The notes under the pieces are model-generated. The model made no database searches. It saw only the letters and a program-made list of their open reading frames with translations, and was not told the origin of the DNA. Positions 25,295 to 33,653 of a stretch of 64,000 nucleotides of DNA are shown in pieces. The position numbers and the translations under genes are program-made. This stretch comes from Actinoplanes sp. TFC3 (GTDB lineage: Bacteria; Actinomycetota; Actinomycetes; Mycobacteriales; Micromonosporaceae), in NCBI RefSeq assembly GCF_001553785.1, contig NZ_LOJP01000001.1, positions 4,513,000-4,576,999 on the forward strand, in the 5' to 3' direction. Position 1 is the first letter of the stretch. Each line of letters opens with the position of its first letter.

Positions 25295-26611
25295 CGCTTA
25301 TCAGCAAAATGCTGCCAGTGGTGTATCGAGCCGGTGCTGATCAGATCATTGAAGCCTTCCTGTCGTAGCCGGTGAGCGCTACAGCCCGGGATCGGCTCCA
25401 CAGGATTGTCGCCACCCCCGGATCGTCCTCGCTGGTTGCTTTGTCGAATCCTTCGCTGGCCATGGCGTAGTAGCCGGGAGCGATCTCGAACAGCATCCTC
25501 ACAACCCGCTGCGGGGTATAGCAGATCTGCGATGTGCTGCCATGCCCCGGAGAGAATTAAATTCCATGTATTTTCATGCCGCGGGATAGCGAGCGGGCGT
25601 CCACGTGGCTTATACGGCATGAAGCCGGTCCGCGACCATGAAGGATTTCTGCAGCGCCCCGCAGCGCTGGTCTGGTTGGGTAATTGCCCTCATACGATTG
25701 CGCTCAATCTGATCGGCAAGCCCAACCAGACCTTGCACCATTTATGCACGCATTCGCGGCCGAACGGACAACTAGGGGGGAACGTCCATTCGGGGATAAA
25801 GTATCCTTTAAGATGATTGAGCGAAGCGGCTCTAAAGGCATGCCACGTCAGAGGATGATAGTATTCTGTGGTCGCCTCAACAGGTGCTGCGGAGCACCCG
25901 AGACCCAAGGGTCGAACCGACGGGCGGAAGAGGCGGTGCAGGTGACAGCCGCACGCGAGGTGCGCGATCGGCACCCTGAATAAGACCCCGTCGGATCCGC
26001 CGAATACGGCGATTCCTCGTCTTGCCGTTTGGTATTCCCATCAGCACCGGGACTGTCGGCCACGAGGCTGCCGCGTCGCCACAGCAACTGCCGGTCCGAT
26101 CTCCTATTACGGGAGTTGTCGTTCCGGTGAGCGATTGCCTATAGCTAATTCGAGCACGAACTGGGTCGACAACGTTTGCGGACGTAAGCCGAGGCCAACC
26201 TTTAGTTAGGTGCACTAGATGCAGACGTGAGATTCGGTTGACGACATGCTTGAATGCGACCAACTCGTTAATGCGCGTAGACCGTTCAGCGACTGAAACC
26301 GACGGCGCTCCGCACAACCCACCGCCCCGGACTGGCCCTCGCGAGGCGGTCAGCCGCCGTAGATCACGATTCAACAGTTGAGTATCATACCTGCGCTCAG
26401 ATCCACACCACCTCTTCCTGCAAGTTCAATCGATGATAAATCTCCTGTCAGCCGCGCTTCCACCCCTCCGCTCGACTGAGTTTGAAAATGGCGCGGCGGC
26501 AGCCGTGCAGGCAACCGCCGCTCATAATTGACTGTTACATCTCACTCAGATATAGCCAGAAAGGCATCACTTCCACCACTGGGACCGCAACGCCTTGACA
26601 CTACGCACGAG
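25295..26611. other. AT-richer gene-poor segment downstream of the Rhs toxin
   Basis: These 1.3 kb have visibly lower GC than the rest of the window and no convincing full gene. This is where an Rhs immunity gene would be expected. Several minus-strand frames of 60-165 codons exist but carry no motifs I recognise. A protein-like remnant at 25341-25556 is listed separately. Near 25880-25920 the minus strand reads GGTTCGACCC, like a tRNA T-arm, but no cloverleaf could be completed. The segment probably consists of decayed toxin, immunity or mobile-element pieces. Confidence 0.5.
25341..25556 (-). pseudogene. Unidentified coding remnant
   Basis: A minus-strand frame of 71 codons with good third-position GC and protein-like composition ends at 25341. 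It contains VVRMLFEIAPGYYAMASEGF and DDPGVATILWSRSRAVALTG. There is no start codon near its 5' edge, where a TAA stands at 25557-25559. The only ATG would leave 53 residues. It could be the tail of a lost immunity or accessory protein. I cannot assign a family. Confidence 0.35.
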
Positions 26612-29600
26612 TCAAGCTCCGTTAATGAACTTAACTTCACTAATGAAGTCGCTATGTCCCCAACTTTTAATCAACCCATTAATTCGTTTAAGTGGATCTG
26701 GCCCGAAATCGACTTCCGAAAGTCCCGTGTATCGCAGGTCGACGATGACGCCTCCGCCGTGAACCTGAGTAAACTTTTTTGCCGTTTTGCTTAGAATGGC
26801 TTTAACGTTACGCGAATTCGGCGTATATACGTCCCATCGAACGCCATTTACGATTAAGTCGCTGGTCCCGCCATCTGCCTTCGTTCCAACTGGAGGTCGG
26901 AGTGTTACCTGGTTTCCCTGATCCGCAAGATATTGCGCAGCCTCACGTTCAGAAGCGGATGGATTCTTCGCGGTAACGGTGAGCTTCCCGCCCTGGGGGG
27001 CACAAGCGACGTCGGCTAGATCGGCAGGCTTAGGCCCCGGACTATTCTTGGCTACCCATGCTTTGGCCTTTGCGACTCGGACAGCTATAGCCCGCTTGAT
27101 GACCGGGCTGATAAGCCGTCCGGCTCCAGCGCCGACGACTCCCCATCCGAAATCGTTGGCGGCATCACCCCACCCGTAGCTGTCGCCGTTGAGCGTGGCT
27201 TGGGTGTAACCACCGACCACCCCGGCGGCACCGCCGGCGAAAAATTCAACGGCCGCGCCCTCAACACCGTAGGCAGCTGCGGCTTCGCCAGCCAGGCCGA
27301 AGGTGGCTCCCATGACGCCGCCGACTACGGCGCCGGTGGCGATCTTTTTGCCGCAGTTTCTCCAATGGTCCATCCCGCAGCTGACGAGCCCGACGCCACC
27401 GCCAATTGCTGCGCCGATGAGCGCGGTGCAGATAATCGCGCATTGGCCGCTGGGGTCGTTCAGGACGGTGGGCCGGTTGTAGCCGTAGTGGTAGGTGTCG
27501 GCGAACGCGGTACCCGGTCCAGCGCTGGCGGGGTCGGGGGTGGTGAAGCGGCCGCTGGCCGGGTTGTAGTCGCGTGCTCGCAGGTCGTAAAGGCCGGAAA
27601 CCTGGTCCTGGTACTGGCCGTGGAAACCAACCGGATACTTCGTGTCGCCGGTCAAAGGCTTGCCGAAGGGGTCGAAGGTGACGCTTGCGCTCAGCGTGTT
27701 GCCGGCGGTGATGTCGGTGACGCTGCCCTGGAAGTCGCTGAGCAGCCAGGTTGGTGTGGTGCCGGTGGTGTCGGCTTCCGGTGCGCCGAGGTCGCTGAGC
27801 GGGTCGCTTATCCACTGGTGGGTGGTGGTGCCGGCGCCATTGGTCTCTGTGGTAAGAGAGGGCAGGCTTCCGAGGGTGTTCCAGGTCCAGGCGGCATCGG
27901 TAGCGCCGTTGACGGCGCGGGCGGTGCGGTTGCCGGATTCGTCGTAGGTGTAGGTGAGGGTGCGCCCGTCGGTAAGGGTGGCGCTGTAAAGGTTGGCGTC
28001 AAGGCCGTATTTGTAGGTGCGGGTGCCTTCGGGCCCGGTCTCTTTCGCGAGGGCGCCGTTGGCGTCGTAGGTGTAGCTGGTGGTTTTGCCAGCGGTGGTT
28101 TCGCCGATGGGGCGGTCGTCTTTGTCGTACGTGGAGGTGGTGACGGCCGTGCCGGTGGTGGTTTTGCTGCGGTTGCCGTTGGCGTCGTACTCGTAAAGGG
28201 TCTGCGCGTCGCCGTTGCCGCAGGTGGTGCCGTTGGCAGGTAGGCACATGCCGGTGATCTGCCCGGCGTTGTCGTAGGTGTAGGTGGCGGTGGTCGTGGT
28301 GGCGCCCCGCTGGGTGGCGACCGTGGTGGGGTTGCCGGTGTTGCTGTAGCTGATGGTCTGGGCCATCAGCTTGCTGCCCGCGGCGGCAGTGTGGGTCAGG
28401 GTGGTGAGTTGCCCCGCCTTGTCGTAGCCGCGGGTGGTGGTGGGTCCGCCGGAGCGGCTGGTGCTGGTCAGCTGCCCTGCGGGGTCGTAGCTGTAGCTGA
28501 TGTCGCGGCTGGTGGAGCCACTGGTCGATGTCGTTTTGGTCAGCCGTGAGTCGTCGCCGTACGTGTAGCTCTGGGTGCGGCCGTCCGGCAGGCTGGTCTT
28601 GGCGAGCCGTCCTACGTTGTCCCAGGTGTAGGCGAAGGCTTTGTTGTTGCGGCTGATGCCGGTGACACGGCCGGCCGGATCGTGGGTGTAGGCGGCGGTG
28701 GTGGTGCCGTTGCTGACCCGATCGGGTTGCCCGGTCGCGGTGTAGGAGTAGGTGATGTCGGGCGTGGTGTCGCTGTAGTCGACCTTGGTGGTCCGGCCGA
28801 GGGTGTCGTAGCTGTAGGCGATGCTGCCCGCAGGCAAGGTGACTGTCTGGGGTTTGCCGTCGGGTGTGTAGGTGTAGCTGGTGACGCGGCCTTCCGGCGT
28901 GGTGGCGTTCTTGACCCGGCCGGCGTTGTCGTAGGTGTAGTTGTAGGCGTTGCCGAGCGGGGTGGTGACGGTCTTCAGTTGCCCGGCTTTGTCGTAGGCG
29001 TATTGGGTGACCGCACCGGTGGCGGTGGTGACCTTGTTGACGTGCCCGGACGAGTCGTGTCCGTAGCTGGTGGCCTGGTTGGCCGGGTCCTGAACCTTGG
29101 TGACCTGGTTCGCGGCGTCGTAGAACGTCTTGACGGTGCGCCCGAGCTGGTCGGTCACGCCGGTGACATTCCCGGCCGGGTCGTAGGCCGTGGCGGTGCT
29201 GTTGCCGTTCGGGTCGATCATGCTCGTGGGGTTGCCGTCGGCGTCGTAGCCGTACGTCGTGGTCGCCCCGCCGCCGGTGGTGGTCTTGGTGAGCTGCCCG
29301 GCCGCGTCGTAGGTGTAGCTGGCGGTGATGCCACCGCTGTTGGTGGTTTTCTGCCGGCCCAGTGCGTCGTAGCTGGTGGTGGAGGCGACACCGGTGGGGT
29401 CGGTGGTGATCACCGGTCGACCGGCGACGTCGTAGGTGGAGCGAGTGACGGCACCACCCGGGTTGGTGACGGCGACCGCGTTGCCGCGGGTGTCGTAGGT
29501 CGTCGTCGTGGCCAGGTACCGGTCAGGATGTTGCGGGTCGACAACGCGGACACTGGTCTGCCGACCGGCCGCGTCATAGTCGTAGAGCGCCGTGTTACGG

Positions 29601-30532
29601 CGTACGGTCTCGGCACTCGCGCCGGTGACGTTACCGGCCGGACCCGTCTCGGTGACCAGTTGCCCGAGTTCGTCGTACGTGGACGTGGTCTTGGCGCCGT
29701 CCGGGCCGACGGTGGTGGTTTCGCGTCCGGCGGCGTCGTAGATGTGGGTGGTGACGTGGTTGTACGGGTCCGTCTCGGTGAGGACGTTGCCGTTCGCGTC
29801 GTAGGTGTAGGTGGTGACGCCGCCGCTCGGGTTGGTCGATGACAGCAGGTTGCCGAGCGCGTCGTAGGTGTTGGTGGTGGTGTGCCCGAGCCCGTCGGTG
29901 GCGGTCAGGATGCGGTCGAAGGCGTCGTAGGTCCAGACGCTGGTGTACTTGTCGTGGGTGGCCTGATCCGCTCCCGCGACGTTGCCACGCGGGTCGGTCT
30001 CGGTGAGCTTGTTGTGGGCACCGTCGTAGGTATAGGTCGTGACGGAGCCACCGGGGCTGGTCAGCGTGACCAGGTCGCCGTGACTGTTGTATTCGTAGCG
30101 GGTGATGCGCCCGAGCTGATCGGTGCTGGTCTTGATCTGTCCCAGGTCGGTGTACGTCTGGGTTTCGGTGCTGCCGTCGGGGTAGGTGGTGGTGCTCAGT
30201 TGCCCCTTGGCGTCGTAGGCGTAGCGAGTGGTGTTGCCCAGCTGATCGGTGTGGCTGGTGACCCGGTTGCCGTCGTAGGTCCAGCTTTGCGACGGCGGGT
30301 TGGCATCGTCGATGCCGGCCGGGTCGGTCTGCTTGGTCAGGTTGCCGCGGGCGTCGTACTCCATGCGGCTGAGCTGCTGCCCGGGGCTGTTCGCGGCGAT
30401 GACTTGGTTGTTCGCGTCGTAGTAGACGTCGCTGGAGCGCCCGTCCGCATCAATCTGCGAGACCAGGACGTTGCCCTGATAGACGTCTTGTGACGACTTG
30501 CCGGTGGGATCGGTGATGGTCGCGGTTTTCAT
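26612..30532 (-). CDS. Rhs/YD-repeat polymorphic toxin, C-terminal part (frame 2 of a split gene)
   Basis: These 1306 codons continue the Rhs protein whose first part ends near 30450. Residues about 1-980 are YD repeats (many copies of the YDxxG-N/R-type unit) that build the Rhs shell. The core ends with YDLRARDYNPASGRFTTPDP, then YNRPTVLNDPSG. A Gly/Ala-rich hydrophobic stretch of about 150 residues follows. The last ~115 residues (about 1190-1306) are the toxin tip: ASEREAAQYLADQG, SDLIVNGVRWDVYTPNS, VIVDLRYTG. This pattern resembles the CdiA-CT tRNase/EndoU-type nuclease family (PF18451-like). No immunity gene follows. The frame opens at ATG 30532, immediately after the frameshift, but independent translation without a signal peptide seems unlikely. 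Confidence 0.85.
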   Translation of the reverse strand: MKTATITDPTGKSSQDVYQGNVLVSQIDADGRSSDVYYDANNQVIAANSPGQQLSRMEYDARGNLTKQTDPAGIDDANPPSQSWTYDGNRVTSHTDQLGNTTRYAYDAKGQLSTTTYPDGSTETQTYTDLGQIKTSTDQLGRITRYEYNSHGDLVTLTSPGGSVTTYTYDGAHNKLTETDPRGNVAGADQATHDKYTSVWTYDAFDRILTATDGLGHTTTNTYDALGNLLSSTNPSGGVTTYTYDANGNVLTETDPYNHVTTHIYDAAGRETTTVGPDGAKTTSTYDELGQLVTETGPAGNVTGASAETVRRNTALYDYDAAGRQTSVRVVDPQHPDRYLATTTTYDTRGNAVAVTNPGGAVTRSTYDVAGRPVITTDPTGVASTTSYDALGRQKTTNSGGITASYTYDAAGQLTKTTTGGGATTTYGYDADGNPTSMIDPNGNSTATAYDPAGNVTGVTDQLGRTVKTFYDAANQVTKVQDPANQATSYGHDSSGHVNKVTTATGAVTQYAYDKAGQLKTVTTPLGNAYNYTYDNAGRVKNATTPEGRVTSYTYTPDGKPQTVTLPAGSIAYSYDTLGRTTKVDYSDTTPDITYSYTATGQPDRVSNGTTTAAYTHDPAGRVTGISRNNKAFAYTWDNVGRLAKTSLPDGRTQSYTYGDDSRLTKTTSTSGSTSRDISYSYDPAGQLTSTSRSGGPTTTRGYDKAGQLTTLTHTAAAGSKLMAQTISYSNTGNPTTVATQRGATTTTATYTYDNAGQITGMCLPANGTTCGNGDAQTLYEYDANGNRSKTTTGTAVTTSTYDKDDRPIGETTAGKTTSYTYDANGALAKETGPEGTRTYKYGLDANLYSATLTDGRTLTYTYDESGNRTARAVNGATDAAWTWNTLGSLPSLTTETNGAGTTTHQWISDPLSDLGAPEADTTGTTPTWLLSDFQGSVTDITAGNTLSASVTFDPFGKPLTGDTKYPVGFHGQYQDQVSGLYDLRARDYNPASGRFTTPDPASAGPGTAFADTYHYGYNRPTVLNDPSGQCAIICTALIGAAIGGGVGLVSCGMDHWRNCGKKIATGAVVGGVMGATFGLAGEAAAAYGVEGAAVEFFAGGAAGVVGGYTQATLNGDSYGWGDAANDFGWGVVGAGAGRLISPVIKRAIAVRVAKAKAWVAKNSPGPKPADLADVACAPQGGKLTVTAKNPSASEREAAQYLADQGNQVTLRPPVGTKADGGTSDLIVNGVRWDVYTPNSRNVKAILSKTAKKFTQVHGGGVIVDLRYTGLSEVDFGPDPLKRINGLIKSWGHSDFISEVKFINGA

Positions 30533-33500
30533 TCGCCGAGTCCCAAGCGAATTTCCACACTGCGCCGGTGGCGTCGGTCTGGCTGACGACCCGCTTGCTG
30601 GTGGGGTCGTAGGTGGTGCGGGCCAGGGTGTTGCCGAGCGGGTCGGTGATCCCGTTCAGCATGCCGGTCGCGTTGTCGTAGCTGTAGGTGGTGGTCTTGG
30701 CGTCGATGCCGGTGACCGAGGTCAGTCGGGACTGCCCTGCGGTGCTGGTGTAGCCGTAGCTGACCGAACGCCCATCGGAGCCGGCGACCTTGGTGATGCG
30801 ATCCCCGGACCAGGTCAGCGTGAGGGTTTGACCGAGAGTGTCGGTCAGTGTGGTCAGATGCGCGCCGCTGTAGGTGGCGGTGACGCCGTGACCGAACTGG
30901 TCAACGTCGGTGAGCAGCTTGCCGTCGCTGTCGAAGCTCATCCGGTCGCCGGCCAGGTTGGTCAGCGCCCAGCCGCCGCCGCTGCGATCACTCAAGCGGG
31001 CGGTGACGCCCGGGTCGGCCGCGGTCCAGCTGCCGTCGCTGTTGTGCCGGTACTGGGTGATGCCGCCGGTGGTGTCGCGGGCCAGGACGGTGCCGTCGCT
31101 CTGCTTGGCGATGGAGGCGTTGAACGCGAACGTCCAGCCCGGACCGAACGCGCCGACGGCAGGGTCAAGGCTGTTATAGGTACGGCCGAAGGTGAGCGGA
31201 GTGCCGGGGCCAGCGATGGAGGTGTCGGTGAACTGCTCCATCAGCGCGCCGGTGGCGGTATTGACCGGGTCGGCGGCGAGCCGGGTGTTGACCATGCCGC
31301 GGCCGTCCCAGCAGGAGCAGCCCCAGGTACGTCGCAGCGGCTGCGGGTGCGGGCCGCCGTAGCCGGACAGACTTACCGACTTCAGGAACAGCGATCGGCC
31401 GCTGTTCTTCCCGGCGTCATTGACGCCGTGTCCGCCGGTGAAGTCGCCGGTTTCATTGCCGGCCCAGTCGACAATGGGGCTGCCGTTCTGGTCGAGATGG
31501 TGGAAATCGCCGTTGGCGTCGCTGCCGAAGCGGAAGATGGTGTGCCGCTCAGTGCCGTACGGACCGTAGTCGGTGTACGCGGTGGTGTCGTTGGTCAGCT
31601 GCTTGCGCAGATGGTTGTCGAAGAAGACGTTGTTCGGGCCGGATGAGCCGGACCACTTGACGGCCTTCTTCCCGGCCGCCCACCAGATCGGGTACCAGTC
31701 GGAATCGTCGGGTGCCGATCCGCCCTCGTCGCCGCAGTTGGTCGAACAGTTCGCCGAGCGGTGCGCGTACGGCACCGAGACTTCGTTGAGCTCGAACAGG
31801 TTGTTGCGCTCATACCCGCCGTGCAGGTTCAGGTCGGAGTCGAAGCTGTTGCCGATCGCGACATTGCCGGCGGAGGACCACTGGAACGTGAAGTGCCGCA
31901 AGTTGCGGGTTGTGTTGCCGGCGTAGACAGAGTCCCAGACGCGCGAGCCGCGGAAGTAGCCGTTGCCGCCCTTGCCCTTGTTCCATGACCCGTCGAGGTT
32001 GTTGTCGACGATGGACAGGTTCGAGGCGACCTCGGTGACGATCGGGTGCGAGCCGGTCATCTCGGTGCGCACACCCTTGACCCACGAGTTCGCGGCCCAC
32101 TTGAACACGATGCCGTTCATCGCGCCGGCCGGGTCCATGTTGCCGTAGTTGTTCTTCGCCTCGTTCTTGTCCAGGTCCGGCTCAGCCTGAGTGAATGACA
32201 GGTTCTCGATACCGACGCCGACGACCGCATCAACCAGCGGGGCCACCTTCGAGGGGAACACTTCCCCGTTGATCGGTGCAGAGCCGTCGGACGTCGAGTC
32301 CAGCGGCAAGTCGTACTCGAGCGGCTTGTCCAGCGTGATCGTCGCGTTCAGCGGATCCCCGGAGGTGACCATGAAAACCTGCTGACGCATGTGCAGGTTT
32401 TCCAGGTCGTAGTCGGTCGGCGTCGCCTTCATCGAGTCATAGAACTTTTGCGAGTTCGCGGCCATCACGTTGACCAGGCCGCCGACCTTGAGGTTGTCGA
32501 ACGACGAGGTCGCAGCCAGGTAGACCGTCTTATCACCCTTGTGCGCCGCGTACTTGGCATCGCCCGGCATGCCCCGCAGGGTCAGTCCGTTGGTCCAGTG
32601 GTCGTTGACCGTGCCCTCGAACAAGTCCTTGCGATTCGCCGGTGCCGAGGCATACGCCTCGGCGTACTTCGTCGCCACCGCACGGCTTTGTACCCGGAAC
32701 AGGCCCTGGCCCGGCCATAGCCAGCCACCGGTCGCCTCGCCGGCGGTCATCGCATCTTCGTCCCAGCGAGACCCGTCCTTGGTGATCTTGTCGTAGCGGG
32801 TGTTCGCATCCGGCGCGTACACCAGGTGCGTACCGCTTGCCGGGTCCGAGCCGACGCCCCGCAGGATGAGGTAATCGGCGTCCAGGTGGAGTTCGTGACT
32901 GACGTTCAGCGTGCCGGCCGGCAGTAGGATCCGGCTTTCTTTGGTGTAATCGCCCGTCGGCGAGCACTGCGCCTTGACTTGGTCGACCGCAGCTTGCAAG
33001 CCGCTGGTGTCGTCCGCCCCGTCGTTCGGCTTCACCCCGAACTTCGTACGCAGATCATCGGCACTGATCCGGCACGCCGCCTCTGAGCGGACATTGGCAT
33101 CGGTCGGCAGGATCGTGCCGCCACCGAAGCCCGCCTTCGACCAGTCGTACAAGCCGGACACCGGCACCCGGCGGTTATCAGCAGTCACCCACAGGCTTTT
33201 GAGCGCCGGGCCGGGCTCCTCATACACCTGCTTCGGCGGCGTCCACCCCTGCGGCACAACGGTGAAATCCGACACTACCCAATCAATGTCTGTCCACCGC
33301 GCCTTCAGCTTGTGCGCACCATCGGTCGTGGACACCGACCACGTGTACGGCGCCGCCGCACTCTTCCCCACATAGTGGTCATCCAGCAGCCACGTCACCG
33401 CCCCGGTGATCGCGTCTGCCTTCTGCAGCGTCGCCATGAACGGCGAGTTGACCGTCGCTCCATCCAAGGCCCGCTCATCGACCGACAGATACGGCTGCGT

Positions 33501-33653
33501 CCCGGCTTCCGGGCCTAACGCCGCCGGGGAAGACCATGCGGGCGCCTGCAGCCCGGACATCACGATCACAAACACCAGCACACCGGCCAGCAAAGAAATT
33601 AATCGCCGTGCCCAATGGGTCTTGGAGAGAGTCAAATTCGGTCCAACAGTCAC
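30450..33653 (-). CDS. Rhs polymorphic toxin, N-terminal part: signal peptide, beta-helix and DUF6531 regions (frame 1)
   Basis: The frame has 1067 codons from GTG 33653. Residues about 15-42 are a signal/anchor (RRLISLLAGVLVFVIVMSGL). Residues about 205-700 look like a right-handed beta-helix of the pectate-lyase/tailspike kind (FGVKPNDGADDTSGLQAAVD, and later NNLDGSWNKGKGGNGYFRGS). From about 795 the Rhs entry region begins (DPVNTATGALMEQFTDTSIA, then PLTFGRTYNSLDP, DUF6531-like), followed by the first YD repeats. After WKFAWDSANE the frame turns to nonsense, while the second frame continues with TATITDPTGKSSQDVYQGNV. One nucleotide must be lost or gained near 30510-30540. Joined, the protein would be about 2,350 residues. 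Confidence 0.85.
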   Translation of the reverse strand: MTVGPNLTLSKTHWARRLISLLAGVLVFVIVMSGLQAPAWSSPAALGPEAGTQPYLSVDERALDGATVNSPFMATLQKADAITGAVTWLLDDHYVGKSAAAPYTWSVSTTDGAHKLKARWTDIDWVVSDFTVVPQGWTPPKQVYEEPGPALKSLWVTADNRRVPVSGLYDWSKAGFGGGTILPTDANVRSEAACRISADDLRTKFGVKPNDGADDTSGLQAAVDQVKAQCSPTGDYTKESRILLPAGTLNVSHELHLDADYLILRGVGSDPASGTHLVYAPDANTRYDKITKDGSRWDEDAMTAGEATGGWLWPGQGLFRVQSRAVATKYAEAYASAPANRKDLFEGTVNDHWTNGLTLRGMPGDAKYAAHKGDKTVYLAATSSFDNLKVGGLVNVMAANSQKFYDSMKATPTDYDLENLHMRQQVFMVTSGDPLNATITLDKPLEYDLPLDSTSDGSAPINGEVFPSKVAPLVDAVVGVGIENLSFTQAEPDLDKNEAKNNYGNMDPAGAMNGIVFKWAANSWVKGVRTEMTGSHPIVTEVASNLSIVDNNLDGSWNKGKGGNGYFRGSRVWDSVYAGNTTRNLRHFTFQWSSAGNVAIGNSFDSDLNLHGGYERNNLFELNEVSVPYAHRSANCSTNCGDEGGSAPDDSDWYPIWWAAGKKAVKWSGSSGPNNVFFDNHLRKQLTNDTTAYTDYGPYGTERHTIFRFGSDANGDFHHLDQNGSPIVDWAGNETGDFTGGHGVNDAGKNSGRSLFLKSVSLSGYGGPHPQPLRRTWGCSCWDGRGMVNTRLAADPVNTATGALMEQFTDTSIAGPGTPLTFGRTYNSLDPAVGAFGPGWTFAFNASIAKQSDGTVLARDTTGGITQYRHNSDGSWTAADPGVTARLSDRSGGGWALTNLAGDRMSFDSDGKLLTDVDQFGHGVTATYSGAHLTTLTDTLGQTLTLTWSGDRITKVAGSDGRSVSYGYTSTAGQSRLTSVTGIDAKTTTYSYDNATGMLNGITDPLGNTLARTTYDPTSKRVVSQTDATGAVWKFAWDSANENRDHHRSHRQVVTRRLSGQRPGLAD

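What the first reader, a model, noticed from the sequence alone, without database searches (positions are those of the whole stretch)
26612..33653. A secreted beta-helix/Rhs polymorphic toxin of about 2,350 residues
The locus codes, in order, for a signal/anchor, a ~500-residue pectate-lyase-like beta-helix, a DUF6531-like entry region, a long YD-repeat shell, a hydrophobic linker and a nuclease-like tip. Fusing a tailspike-like beta-helix to an Rhs cage is not the usual Gram-positive Rhs/WapA layout. It might add a glycan- or surface-binding module to toxin delivery. The domain order is read from sequence; the delivery idea is inference.
Basis: partly seen in the sequence, partly recalled or inferred. 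Interest (0 to 1): 0.72.

Follow-up and report, generated by a model that had tools for sequence, protein, structure and literature searches.

The report
Broken Rhs toxin with tailspike-like helix
A soil actinobacterium carries a toxin gene in which a helix of the kind that cuts or binds sugar polymers is fused to a toxin cage; the same design recurs in other actinobacteria with changing toxin tips, but in this genome the gene is split by a frame break and probably does not work.

Summary
The domain order is real, but it is not one 2,350-residue protein. It lies in two overlapping frames on the - strand: ORF1 30450-33653 (signal peptide, Ig-like domain, ~608-residue beta-helix, DUF6531, first YD repeats) and ORF2 26612-30532 (YD shell, Rhs core, hydrophobic linker, nuclease tip).

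The beta-helix matches no Pfam family. Its AlphaFold2 model (pLDDT 82) has phage tailspikes and a capsule depolymerase as nearest PDB folds. Of 208 relatives found, 80 were examined; 6 (Kribbella, Streptomyces, Acrocarpospora, Actinomadura) share the helix/DUF6531/Rhs layout, four of them open from Ig part to tip. They form one clade with the window copy (SH-aLRT 99) and carry varied tips. About 33 of the 80 have a cellulose-binding-type tail instead.

The window tip is a CdiA_C PD-(D/E)XK nuclease with E, D, D and K conserved. Six of six genomes with near tips have a small, probably immunity, gene directly downstream; it was not found in this genome.

Verdict: a new variant of the exported, WapA-like Rhs polymorphic toxin with a tailspike-like polysaccharide-enzyme module, here as a broken, probably decaying copy. 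The literature searches made listed no description of this fusion.

The parts
30450..33653 (-). ORF1, 1067 aa, GTG start: signal peptide, Ig-like domain, beta-helix, DUF6531, first YD repeats
33525..33653 (-). signal-peptide-like N-terminus (ORF1 residues 1-43)
   Evidence: read from the sequence; no signal-peptide program was run
33249..33506 (-). Ig-like domain (ORF1 about 50-135)
   Evidence: Big_7 E 0.015, below its cut-off; strands in the model and FN3-like PDB matches; similar segments repeated in relatives
31374..33197 (-). beta-helix domain (ORF1 153-760)
   Evidence: 0 Pfam families; model pLDDT 82, pTM 0.80; Foldseek tailspike matches; relatives
31239..31400 (-). helix/Rhs junction shared with six relatives (ORF1 752-805)
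31056..31271 (-). DUF6531 (ORF1 795-866)
   Evidence: PF20148 E 4.9e-18
30453..30655 (-). overlap of the two open frames, within which the frame break lies
26612..30532 (-). ORF2, 1306 aa from its first ATG: YD shell, Rhs core, linker, tip
27443..27676 (-). Rhs-associated core (ORF2 953-1030)
   Evidence: TIGR03696 E 1.5e-15; Asp-Pro pair at spacing 26 in 6 of 6 proteins compared
26993..27442 (-). hydrophobic, glycine-rich linker before the tip (ORF2 about 1031-1180)
   Evidence: sequence; alignment with five relatives
26615..26950 (-). nuclease tip, CdiA_C type (ORF2 1195-1306)
   Evidence: PF18451; invariant E1, D31, D40, K59 in 8 aligned tips; model pLDDT 87.8; Foldseek 4g6v E 9.1e-5
25300..26611 (-). 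place where relatives carry an immunity-type ORF; none of that type here

Best explanation
The locus is a frame-broken member of a small clade of exported Rhs polymorphic toxins of actinobacteria. In members with an open frame, a signal peptide would export one long protein: Ig-like spacers, a tailspike-like beta-helix, the DUF6531 plug, the YD-repeat cage and an exchangeable toxin tip. The beta-helix most likely acts on a polysaccharide (capsule, matrix or wall polymer) of the neighbour, as lyase or binder, and so brings the cage to the target surface. The cage holds the tip, the Rhs core cuts it free and the hydrophobic linker helps it across the membrane. In this copy the tip would be a metal-dependent nuclease, probably a tRNase, of the CdiA-CT PD-(D/E)XK type. 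Because of the frame break and the missing immunity gene this copy is probably not a working toxin; at most a secreted Ig/beta-helix/partial-Rhs protein is made. Shown by computation: domain order, helix fold class, common clade, differing tips, tip fold and conserved residues, the break in the held sequence, absence of the known immunity type. Inferred: export, action on a glycan, caging, cleavage, delivery, RNA as target, present inactivity.
For: Two frames with a codon-bias switch. Domains. Helix model and tailspike/depolymerase matches. 6 of 80 examined relatives with the same fusion, one clade with the window copy, SH-aLRT 99. Relatives elsewhere look like secreted polysaccharide enzymes: about 33 of 80 with CBM2-like tails (CBM2 confirmed by Pfam in the one scanned), and a Vibrio relative beside alginate-lyase, KdgM-porin and glucuronate-isomerase genes. 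Tips differ after a shared linker. Tip: invariant E/D/D/K, with the D-9-D-19-K spacing of 4G6V. Immunity-type ORF found in 6 of 6 genomes with near tips and not in the window genome. dN/dS 0.12 to 0.19 in the helix comparisons (4 pairs).
Against: Foldseek TM-scores for the helix are low (query-normalised 0.22-0.27 for the top five, identity 8-11%), so the fold class is supported, not an activity; other good matches are hydrolases, epimerases and inulin lyases. No substrate is known. The frame break could be a sequencing error in a 24-contig draft, in which case the gene is alive. The window genome could have an unlike immunity protein: two weaker tip relatives have a different downstream ORF. 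Only 80 of 208 relatives were examined. Third-position GC gives no clear frame in the tip, and in the linker bin another frame scores slightly higher, 0.72 against 0.68.
Confidence: 0.6

Rival explanations
1. The beta-helix is only an anchor or adhesin: it holds the toxin on the producer's own wall or on a surface glycan, as the N-terminal wall-binding region of WapA does, and has no enzymatic part in delivery.
For: WapA has a wall-binding N-terminal region in the same position (PMC12704120 passages); polymorphic toxins often carry glycan-binding domains there (PMC3482391 section 42).
Against: 105 invariant columns over 19 relatives, with His, Lys, Arg, Glu, Asn and Trp blocks, and enzyme-like relatives with CBM2-type tails look more like an active site than a mere binder.
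Confidence: 0.3
2. The gene is intact and working; the frame break is a sequencing or assembly error and the immunity protein is of another type or lies elsewhere.
For: Draft genome; both frames keep codon bias up to the break; two of the six relatives are also interrupted, at other places, as errors in repetitive GC-rich genes would be.
Against: No immunity gene of the type that 6 of 6 genomes with near tips have; the second helix copy in the same genome is plainly a remnant.
Confidence: 0.3
3. The fusion is a local accident or misjoin of a helix gene and an Rhs gene in this genome.
For: The junction peptide was found in no other of the 397 genomes sampled in the order or the 394 in the class.
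Against: Six loci from named genomes of four other families share the junction and one clade; the two helix copies in this genome differ at dS 0.70.
Confidence: 0.03

Closest known systems
WapA-type Rhs polymorphic toxins of Gram-positive bacteria (Bacillus subtilis, Streptococcus suis)
   Same: Signal peptide, N-terminal surface region, DUF6531, YD/Rhs barrel, core, exchangeable toxin tip (PMC12704120 passages)
   Different: No DNRLRE or LysM hit; a tailspike-like beta-helix and Ig-like domain stand in their place; broken in the window
T6SS Rhs effectors such as Tse5
   Same: DUF6531 plug, YD cage, core with a conserved Asp pair (PMC10684867 passages)
   Different: Signal peptide and beta-helix instead of a T6SS module; Asp-Pro spacing 26 instead of DPxG-x18-DPxG
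Bacterial teneurin-like proteins
   Same: YD shell that hides a polymorphic toxin tip (PMC13018210 passages); TEN_YD-shell hit in ORF2, E 9.2e-13 but below its cut-off
   Different: No FN-plug or NHL domain found; DUF6531 plug instead
CdiA-CT PD-(D/E)XK toxins, solved as 4G6V
   Same: Fold (Foldseek E 9.1e-5) and the D-9-D-19-K spacing
   Different: Carried by an Rhs cage, not a two-partner-secreted CdiA; the usual neighbour immunity gene not found
Phage tailspikes and capsule depolymerases (4ru4, 8bke, 4ru5)
   Same: Nearest PDB folds of the helix model
   Different: 8-11% identity; no sequence match in phage records or viral contigs

Membership tests
Rhs polymorphic toxin | DUF6531 plug, YD repeats and Rhs core | tested here: met
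   (over two frames)
Rhs polymorphic toxin | Exchangeable tip after a conserved region | tested here: met
   Window and five relatives with open core and tip differ after the linker
Rhs polymorphic toxin | Immunity gene directly downstream | tested here: not met
   No ORF of the immunity type of near tips at the place or in the genome; 6 of 6 control genomes match. An unlike immunity protein is not excluded
Rhs polymorphic toxin | One continuous reading frame | tested here: not met
   (window copy); 4 of 6 relatives open from Ig part to tip
WapA | Signal peptide and export | tested here: inconclusive
   Signal-peptide-like N-terminus by eye only
WapA | DNRLRE / wall-binding N-terminal region | tested here: not met
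   No such Pfam hit in ORF1; beta-helix in its place
CdiA_C (PF18451) nuclease | Profile match over the curated cut-off | tested here: met
   30.6 bits, cut-off 26.6
CdiA_C (PF18451) nuclease | E, D, D, K active-site residues as in 4G6V | tested here: met
   Invariant in 8 aligned tips; D-9-D-19-K spacing identical, the E-to-D distance is 30 instead of 27
CdiA_C (PF18451) nuclease | RNA cleavage | not testable with these tools
   needs an assay
Polysaccharide lyase / tailspike depolymerase | Right-handed beta-helix fold | tested here: met
   Model and Foldseek, fold class only, low TM-scores
Polysaccharide lyase / tailspike depolymerase | Match to a catalogued family | tested here: not met
   0 Pfam families for the window helix; a relative, L010, hits Pect-lyase_RHGA_epim below its cut-off (E 0.0011)
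Polysaccharide lyase / tailspike depolymerase | Activity on a polysaccharide | not testable with these tools
   needs an assay

The most novel reading that the evidence does not exclude
The helix is an active depolymerase recruited from secreted polymer-degrading enzymes, so this clade of Rhs toxins works like a phage tailspike: it digests the coat of a neighbouring cell and sets the Rhs cage on the exposed surface. The same helix family also stands next to a NucA/NucB nuclease, PI-PLC and GDSL-lipase domains and a nuclease-like domain in other actinobacteria, and so may be a general coat-cutting carrier for secreted effectors.
Probability: 0.3. Interest if true: 0.75.

Novelty: new variant of a known kind. 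Interest (0 to 1): 0.5.

Why it matters
How Gram-positive Rhs toxins pass the wall and enter the target is unsolved (said of WapA in PMC12704120, passages). A clade that carries its own tailspike-like module suggests a concrete, testable answer for one group and gives a compact domain to assay. It also points to a beta-helix family, absent from Pfam, that is shared between likely biomass enzymes and secreted toxins.

Tried and rejected
Single long protein: rejected, two frames. Phage origin of the helix by sequence: no match in phage records or viral contigs. Programmed frameshift as a family trait: unlikely, five relatives are open across that place and L052 is interrupted elsewhere. Local misjoin: rejected by named relatives and tree. 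Insertion at a conserved site: each flank gene was searched in 30 genomes; in the listed places only G365, of another family, has the two near each other (paralogues at 42% and 62%, within 2 kb, opposite order), so no empty site could be read. tRNA-linked island: no tRNA in the window. Defence-system protein: 0 PADLOC families for ORF1 and ORF2. Immunity elsewhere in the genome: none of the tested type. The treekit table gave two changes for the label 'fusion', because the second own copy, a remnant without that label, sits inside the clade. The CBM2 motif script gave 40 of 80; on reading the tails printed, ten of these (L095, L097, L100, L103, L104, L105, L107, L108, L116, L118) are a second beta-helix-like tail and three under 'other' (L110, L115, L122) look CBM2-like, hence 'about 33'. 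From the ten tip-bearing genomes, two (G285, broken; G055, weak) were left out of the tip alignment. Papers: section 42 of PMC3482391 was read whole; otherwise passages only or listings.
Full report
1. Observation. The region 26612-33653 on the - strand holds two long overlapping frames, not one: ORF1 30450-33653 (1067 aa) and ORF2 26612-30532 (1306 aa; open frame 26615-30655). GC at third codon positions is 0.75-0.95 in the ORF1 frame from the start down to about 30.65 kb and 0.82-0.93 in the ORF2 frame from about 30.35 to 27.35 kb, so both parts look coding and the break lies between. In the linker bin another frame scores slightly higher (0.72 against 0.68) and the tip bins show no frame. 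The two tip bins have GC 0.52-0.55, the rest of the gene 0.60-0.70.

2. The beta-helix. Residues 153-760 of ORF1 match no Pfam family at E 0.01; ORF1 has no PHROGs or PADLOC hit, only a sub-threshold YD hit in NCBIfam, and one PDB sequence hit at E 0.78 outside the helix. An AlphaFold2 model of residues 41-805 with 31 aligned sequences has mean pLDDT 82.0 and pTM 0.80; stretches under 50 are residues 1-11, 519-523, 592-608 and 723-765 of the model. Foldseek's first four matches are two chains of the LKA1 tailspike, the KP34p57 capsule depolymerase and the phi297 tailspike (E 3.5e-8 to 3.2e-7); later ones include exopolygalacturonase, mannuronan epimerases, inulin lyase and the lyase RbmB; the Ig-like domain matches FN3-like modules. 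Query-normalised TM-scores of the top five are 0.22-0.27 at 8-11% identity, so only the fold class is supported. Nineteen relatives, one from Vibrio, share 105 invariant columns, with GSHP, WNKGxGGNGYxRGS, RHxxxQW and HGGxERxN blocks; that these form an active or binding site is inference.

3. Relatives of the helix. Plasmid records gave Streptomyces proteins at 50-57% and Vibrio proteins at about 35% identity; the Vibrio gene looked at lies beside alginate-lyase, KdgM-porin, symporter and glucuronate-isomerase genes. In the window's family 31 of 354 genomes have the helix, and among these the window genome is the only one of its genus. The family is Micromonosporaceae, inferred because contigs of two 'same family' genomes have the lengths of Micromonospora sp. 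C31 and Phytohabitans flavus contigs; the genus has no name here. A scan of 84,980 species genomes found 208 relatives; the best 80 were kept and examined, 128 were not. Of the 80: 6 Rhs fusions; about 33 with a CBM2-like tail; 24 without C-terminal extension; about 17 with a second beta-helix-like or other tail. CBM2 was confirmed by Pfam in the one such protein scanned (P0006, E 4.2e-27). Other pairings: ricin-B and PI-PLC before the helix (L009, E 0.0015, below the cut-off; L129, E 1.7e-5, over it), a GDSL lipase in L010 (E 6.9e-8), NucA/NucB before it in L082 (E 3e-11). Eight loci of two Micromonosporaceae genera (L035-L042) have a C-terminal part of about 500 residues with motifs that I read as an endonuclease/exonuclease/phosphatase-type nuclease; Pfam gave only ricin-B in the one scanned, so that label is recalled, not tested.

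4. The fusion clade. L050 Kribbella catacumbae (2587 aa), L053 Actinomadura spongiicola (2718), L054 Streptomyces odonnellii (2582; helix 79% identical) and L079 Actinomadura terrae (2557) are open from the Ig part to the tip; L056 Acrocarpospora macrocephala is open from helix to tip (2287) but has a stop between Ig part and helix; L052 Actinomadura sp. CNU-125 is interrupted in the YD region, at a place other than the window's (lengths are stop to stop). The junction motif is shared by the six and the window. In a 90-row tree the seven fusion helices and the second helix copy of the window genome form one group (SH-aLRT 99; quick method, no bootstrap; root at the midpoint). One origin of the fusion, then spread over five actinobacterial families, is the simplest reading. 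The junction peptide was found in no other of 397 genomes of the order and 394 of the class; apart from the window genome there was no known positive in these samples, so this says only that it is rare. Relatives with a full Ig part give three or four Ig-like matches; in the window I see one.

5. Tips. After a shared hydrophobic linker the C-termini differ: CdiA_C in the window, CDI_toxin_EC869_like in L056 (E 7e-22), a pretoxin HINT before the tip in L053 (E 2.6e-8), and tips without a Pfam family over the cut-off in L050, L053, L054 and L079. Small ORFs follow directly: 112 aa after L050, 71 aa after L053, 163 aa after L054, 176 aa after L079, and after L056 a longer ORF (239 aa frame, 342 bases on) with a similar sequence to that of L079. 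None of these was tested as immunity. The Asp-Pro pair of the Rhs core is kept at spacing 26 in 6 of 6 proteins compared, not the published DPxG-x18-DPxG.

6. The window tip. Relatives occur in 10 of 354 genomes of the family, itself included, and in no plasmid record. In eight aligned tips E1, D31, D40 and K59 are invariant, with ten other columns; D31, D40 and K59 have the spacing of D214, D223 and K242 of the tRNase 4G6V, listed in PMC9086364 (passages), while the E-to-D distance is 30 instead of 27. The tip model (pLDDT 87.8) has 4g6v as its only Foldseek match below E 0.001 (E 9.1e-5, TM 0.59 and 0.51). Six genomes with near tips have an ORF of about 80 residues with CxC and CxxC motifs directly downstream (in one of them, G285, the tip itself is broken); as a query it was found in 6 of 6 of them, weakest in G303 (E 2.4e-9), and not in the window genome. 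It has no Pfam family, and that it is an immunity protein is inferred from its place. Two weaker tip relatives (L138, L139) have a different ORF of about 160 residues there, so an unlike immunity protein in the window genome is not excluded.

7. Second copy. The same genome has a helix copy at C1:1365992-1367335 (86% identical over 448 residues), whose start is replaced by a DDE_5 transposase piece (E 2.5e-22) and whose end is lost, next to Rhs and pretoxin-HINT remnants. dN/dS between the two copies is 0.12 with dS 0.70 over 439 codons; three other helix pairs give 0.17-0.19. So the copies separated long ago and were mostly under purifying selection. With the missing immunity gene this fits a genome that is losing such toxins; that is inference.

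8. How it most likely works. In open members: export by the signal peptide, contact through Ig-like spacers and helix, action of the helix on a polysaccharide, an Rhs cage that holds the tip behind the DUF6531 plug (by analogy with Tse5, PMC10684867 passages), core cleavage, entry of the toxin. All of these steps are inferred from anatomy. In this genome the break separates signal and helix from most of the cage and the tip, so no secreted tip is expected if the break is real.

9. Known or new. Zhang et al. 2012 (PMC3482391, section 42 read whole) list LysM, discoidin, laminin-G, ricin-B, lectin, peptidoglycan-binding, wall-binding and SH3 domains on polymorphic toxins; the held part of the main text has no 'pectate' or 'beta-helix'. 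Six literature searches with Rhs, YD-repeat, beta-helix, lyase or actinobacterial terms listed no paper whose title or printed abstract start describes this fusion; most listed papers were not opened, and subscription journals are largely not held. I rate it a new variant of a known kind.

Noticed in passing
L035-L042 (two Micromonosporaceae genera): The same helix family is followed by a ~500-residue C-terminal part with nuclease-like motifs (by eye) and a ricin-B domain (Pfam, in the one scanned).
   Followed up: partly
L082:2-1552: Streptomyces xylophagus: a NucA/NucB DNase domain stands before the helix (E 3e-11).
   Followed up: partly
L009, L129, L010: Streptomyces: ricin-B and PI-PLC-X, or a GDSL lipase, stand before the helix.
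   Followed up: partly
L044:3686-10678 (G000:C1:1360685-1367677): Second locus in the same genome with Rhs and pretoxin-HINT remnants and a helix fragment joined to a DDE_5 transposase piece; a run of N lies in the Rhs remnant.
   Followed up: partly
L132-L137, directly downstream of the tips: A small ORF family (~80 aa, CxC and CxxC) without Pfam hit follows six CdiA_C-type tips: a candidate immunity family.
   Followed up: partly
L132 (G336:C12:695641-695964): A near tip sits in an open frame of 8,061 residues.
   Followed up: no
L079:15672-17400: Two similar immunity-like ORFs follow the Actinomadura terrae fusion; a YD-repeat piece follows the L053 fusion.
   Followed up: no
G000:C1 near 222474, 2083687, 5203981, 5230006: Other RHS-repeat frames in the same genome (665 to 2,399 aa); regions were fetched (L046-L049) but not studied.
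   Followed up: no
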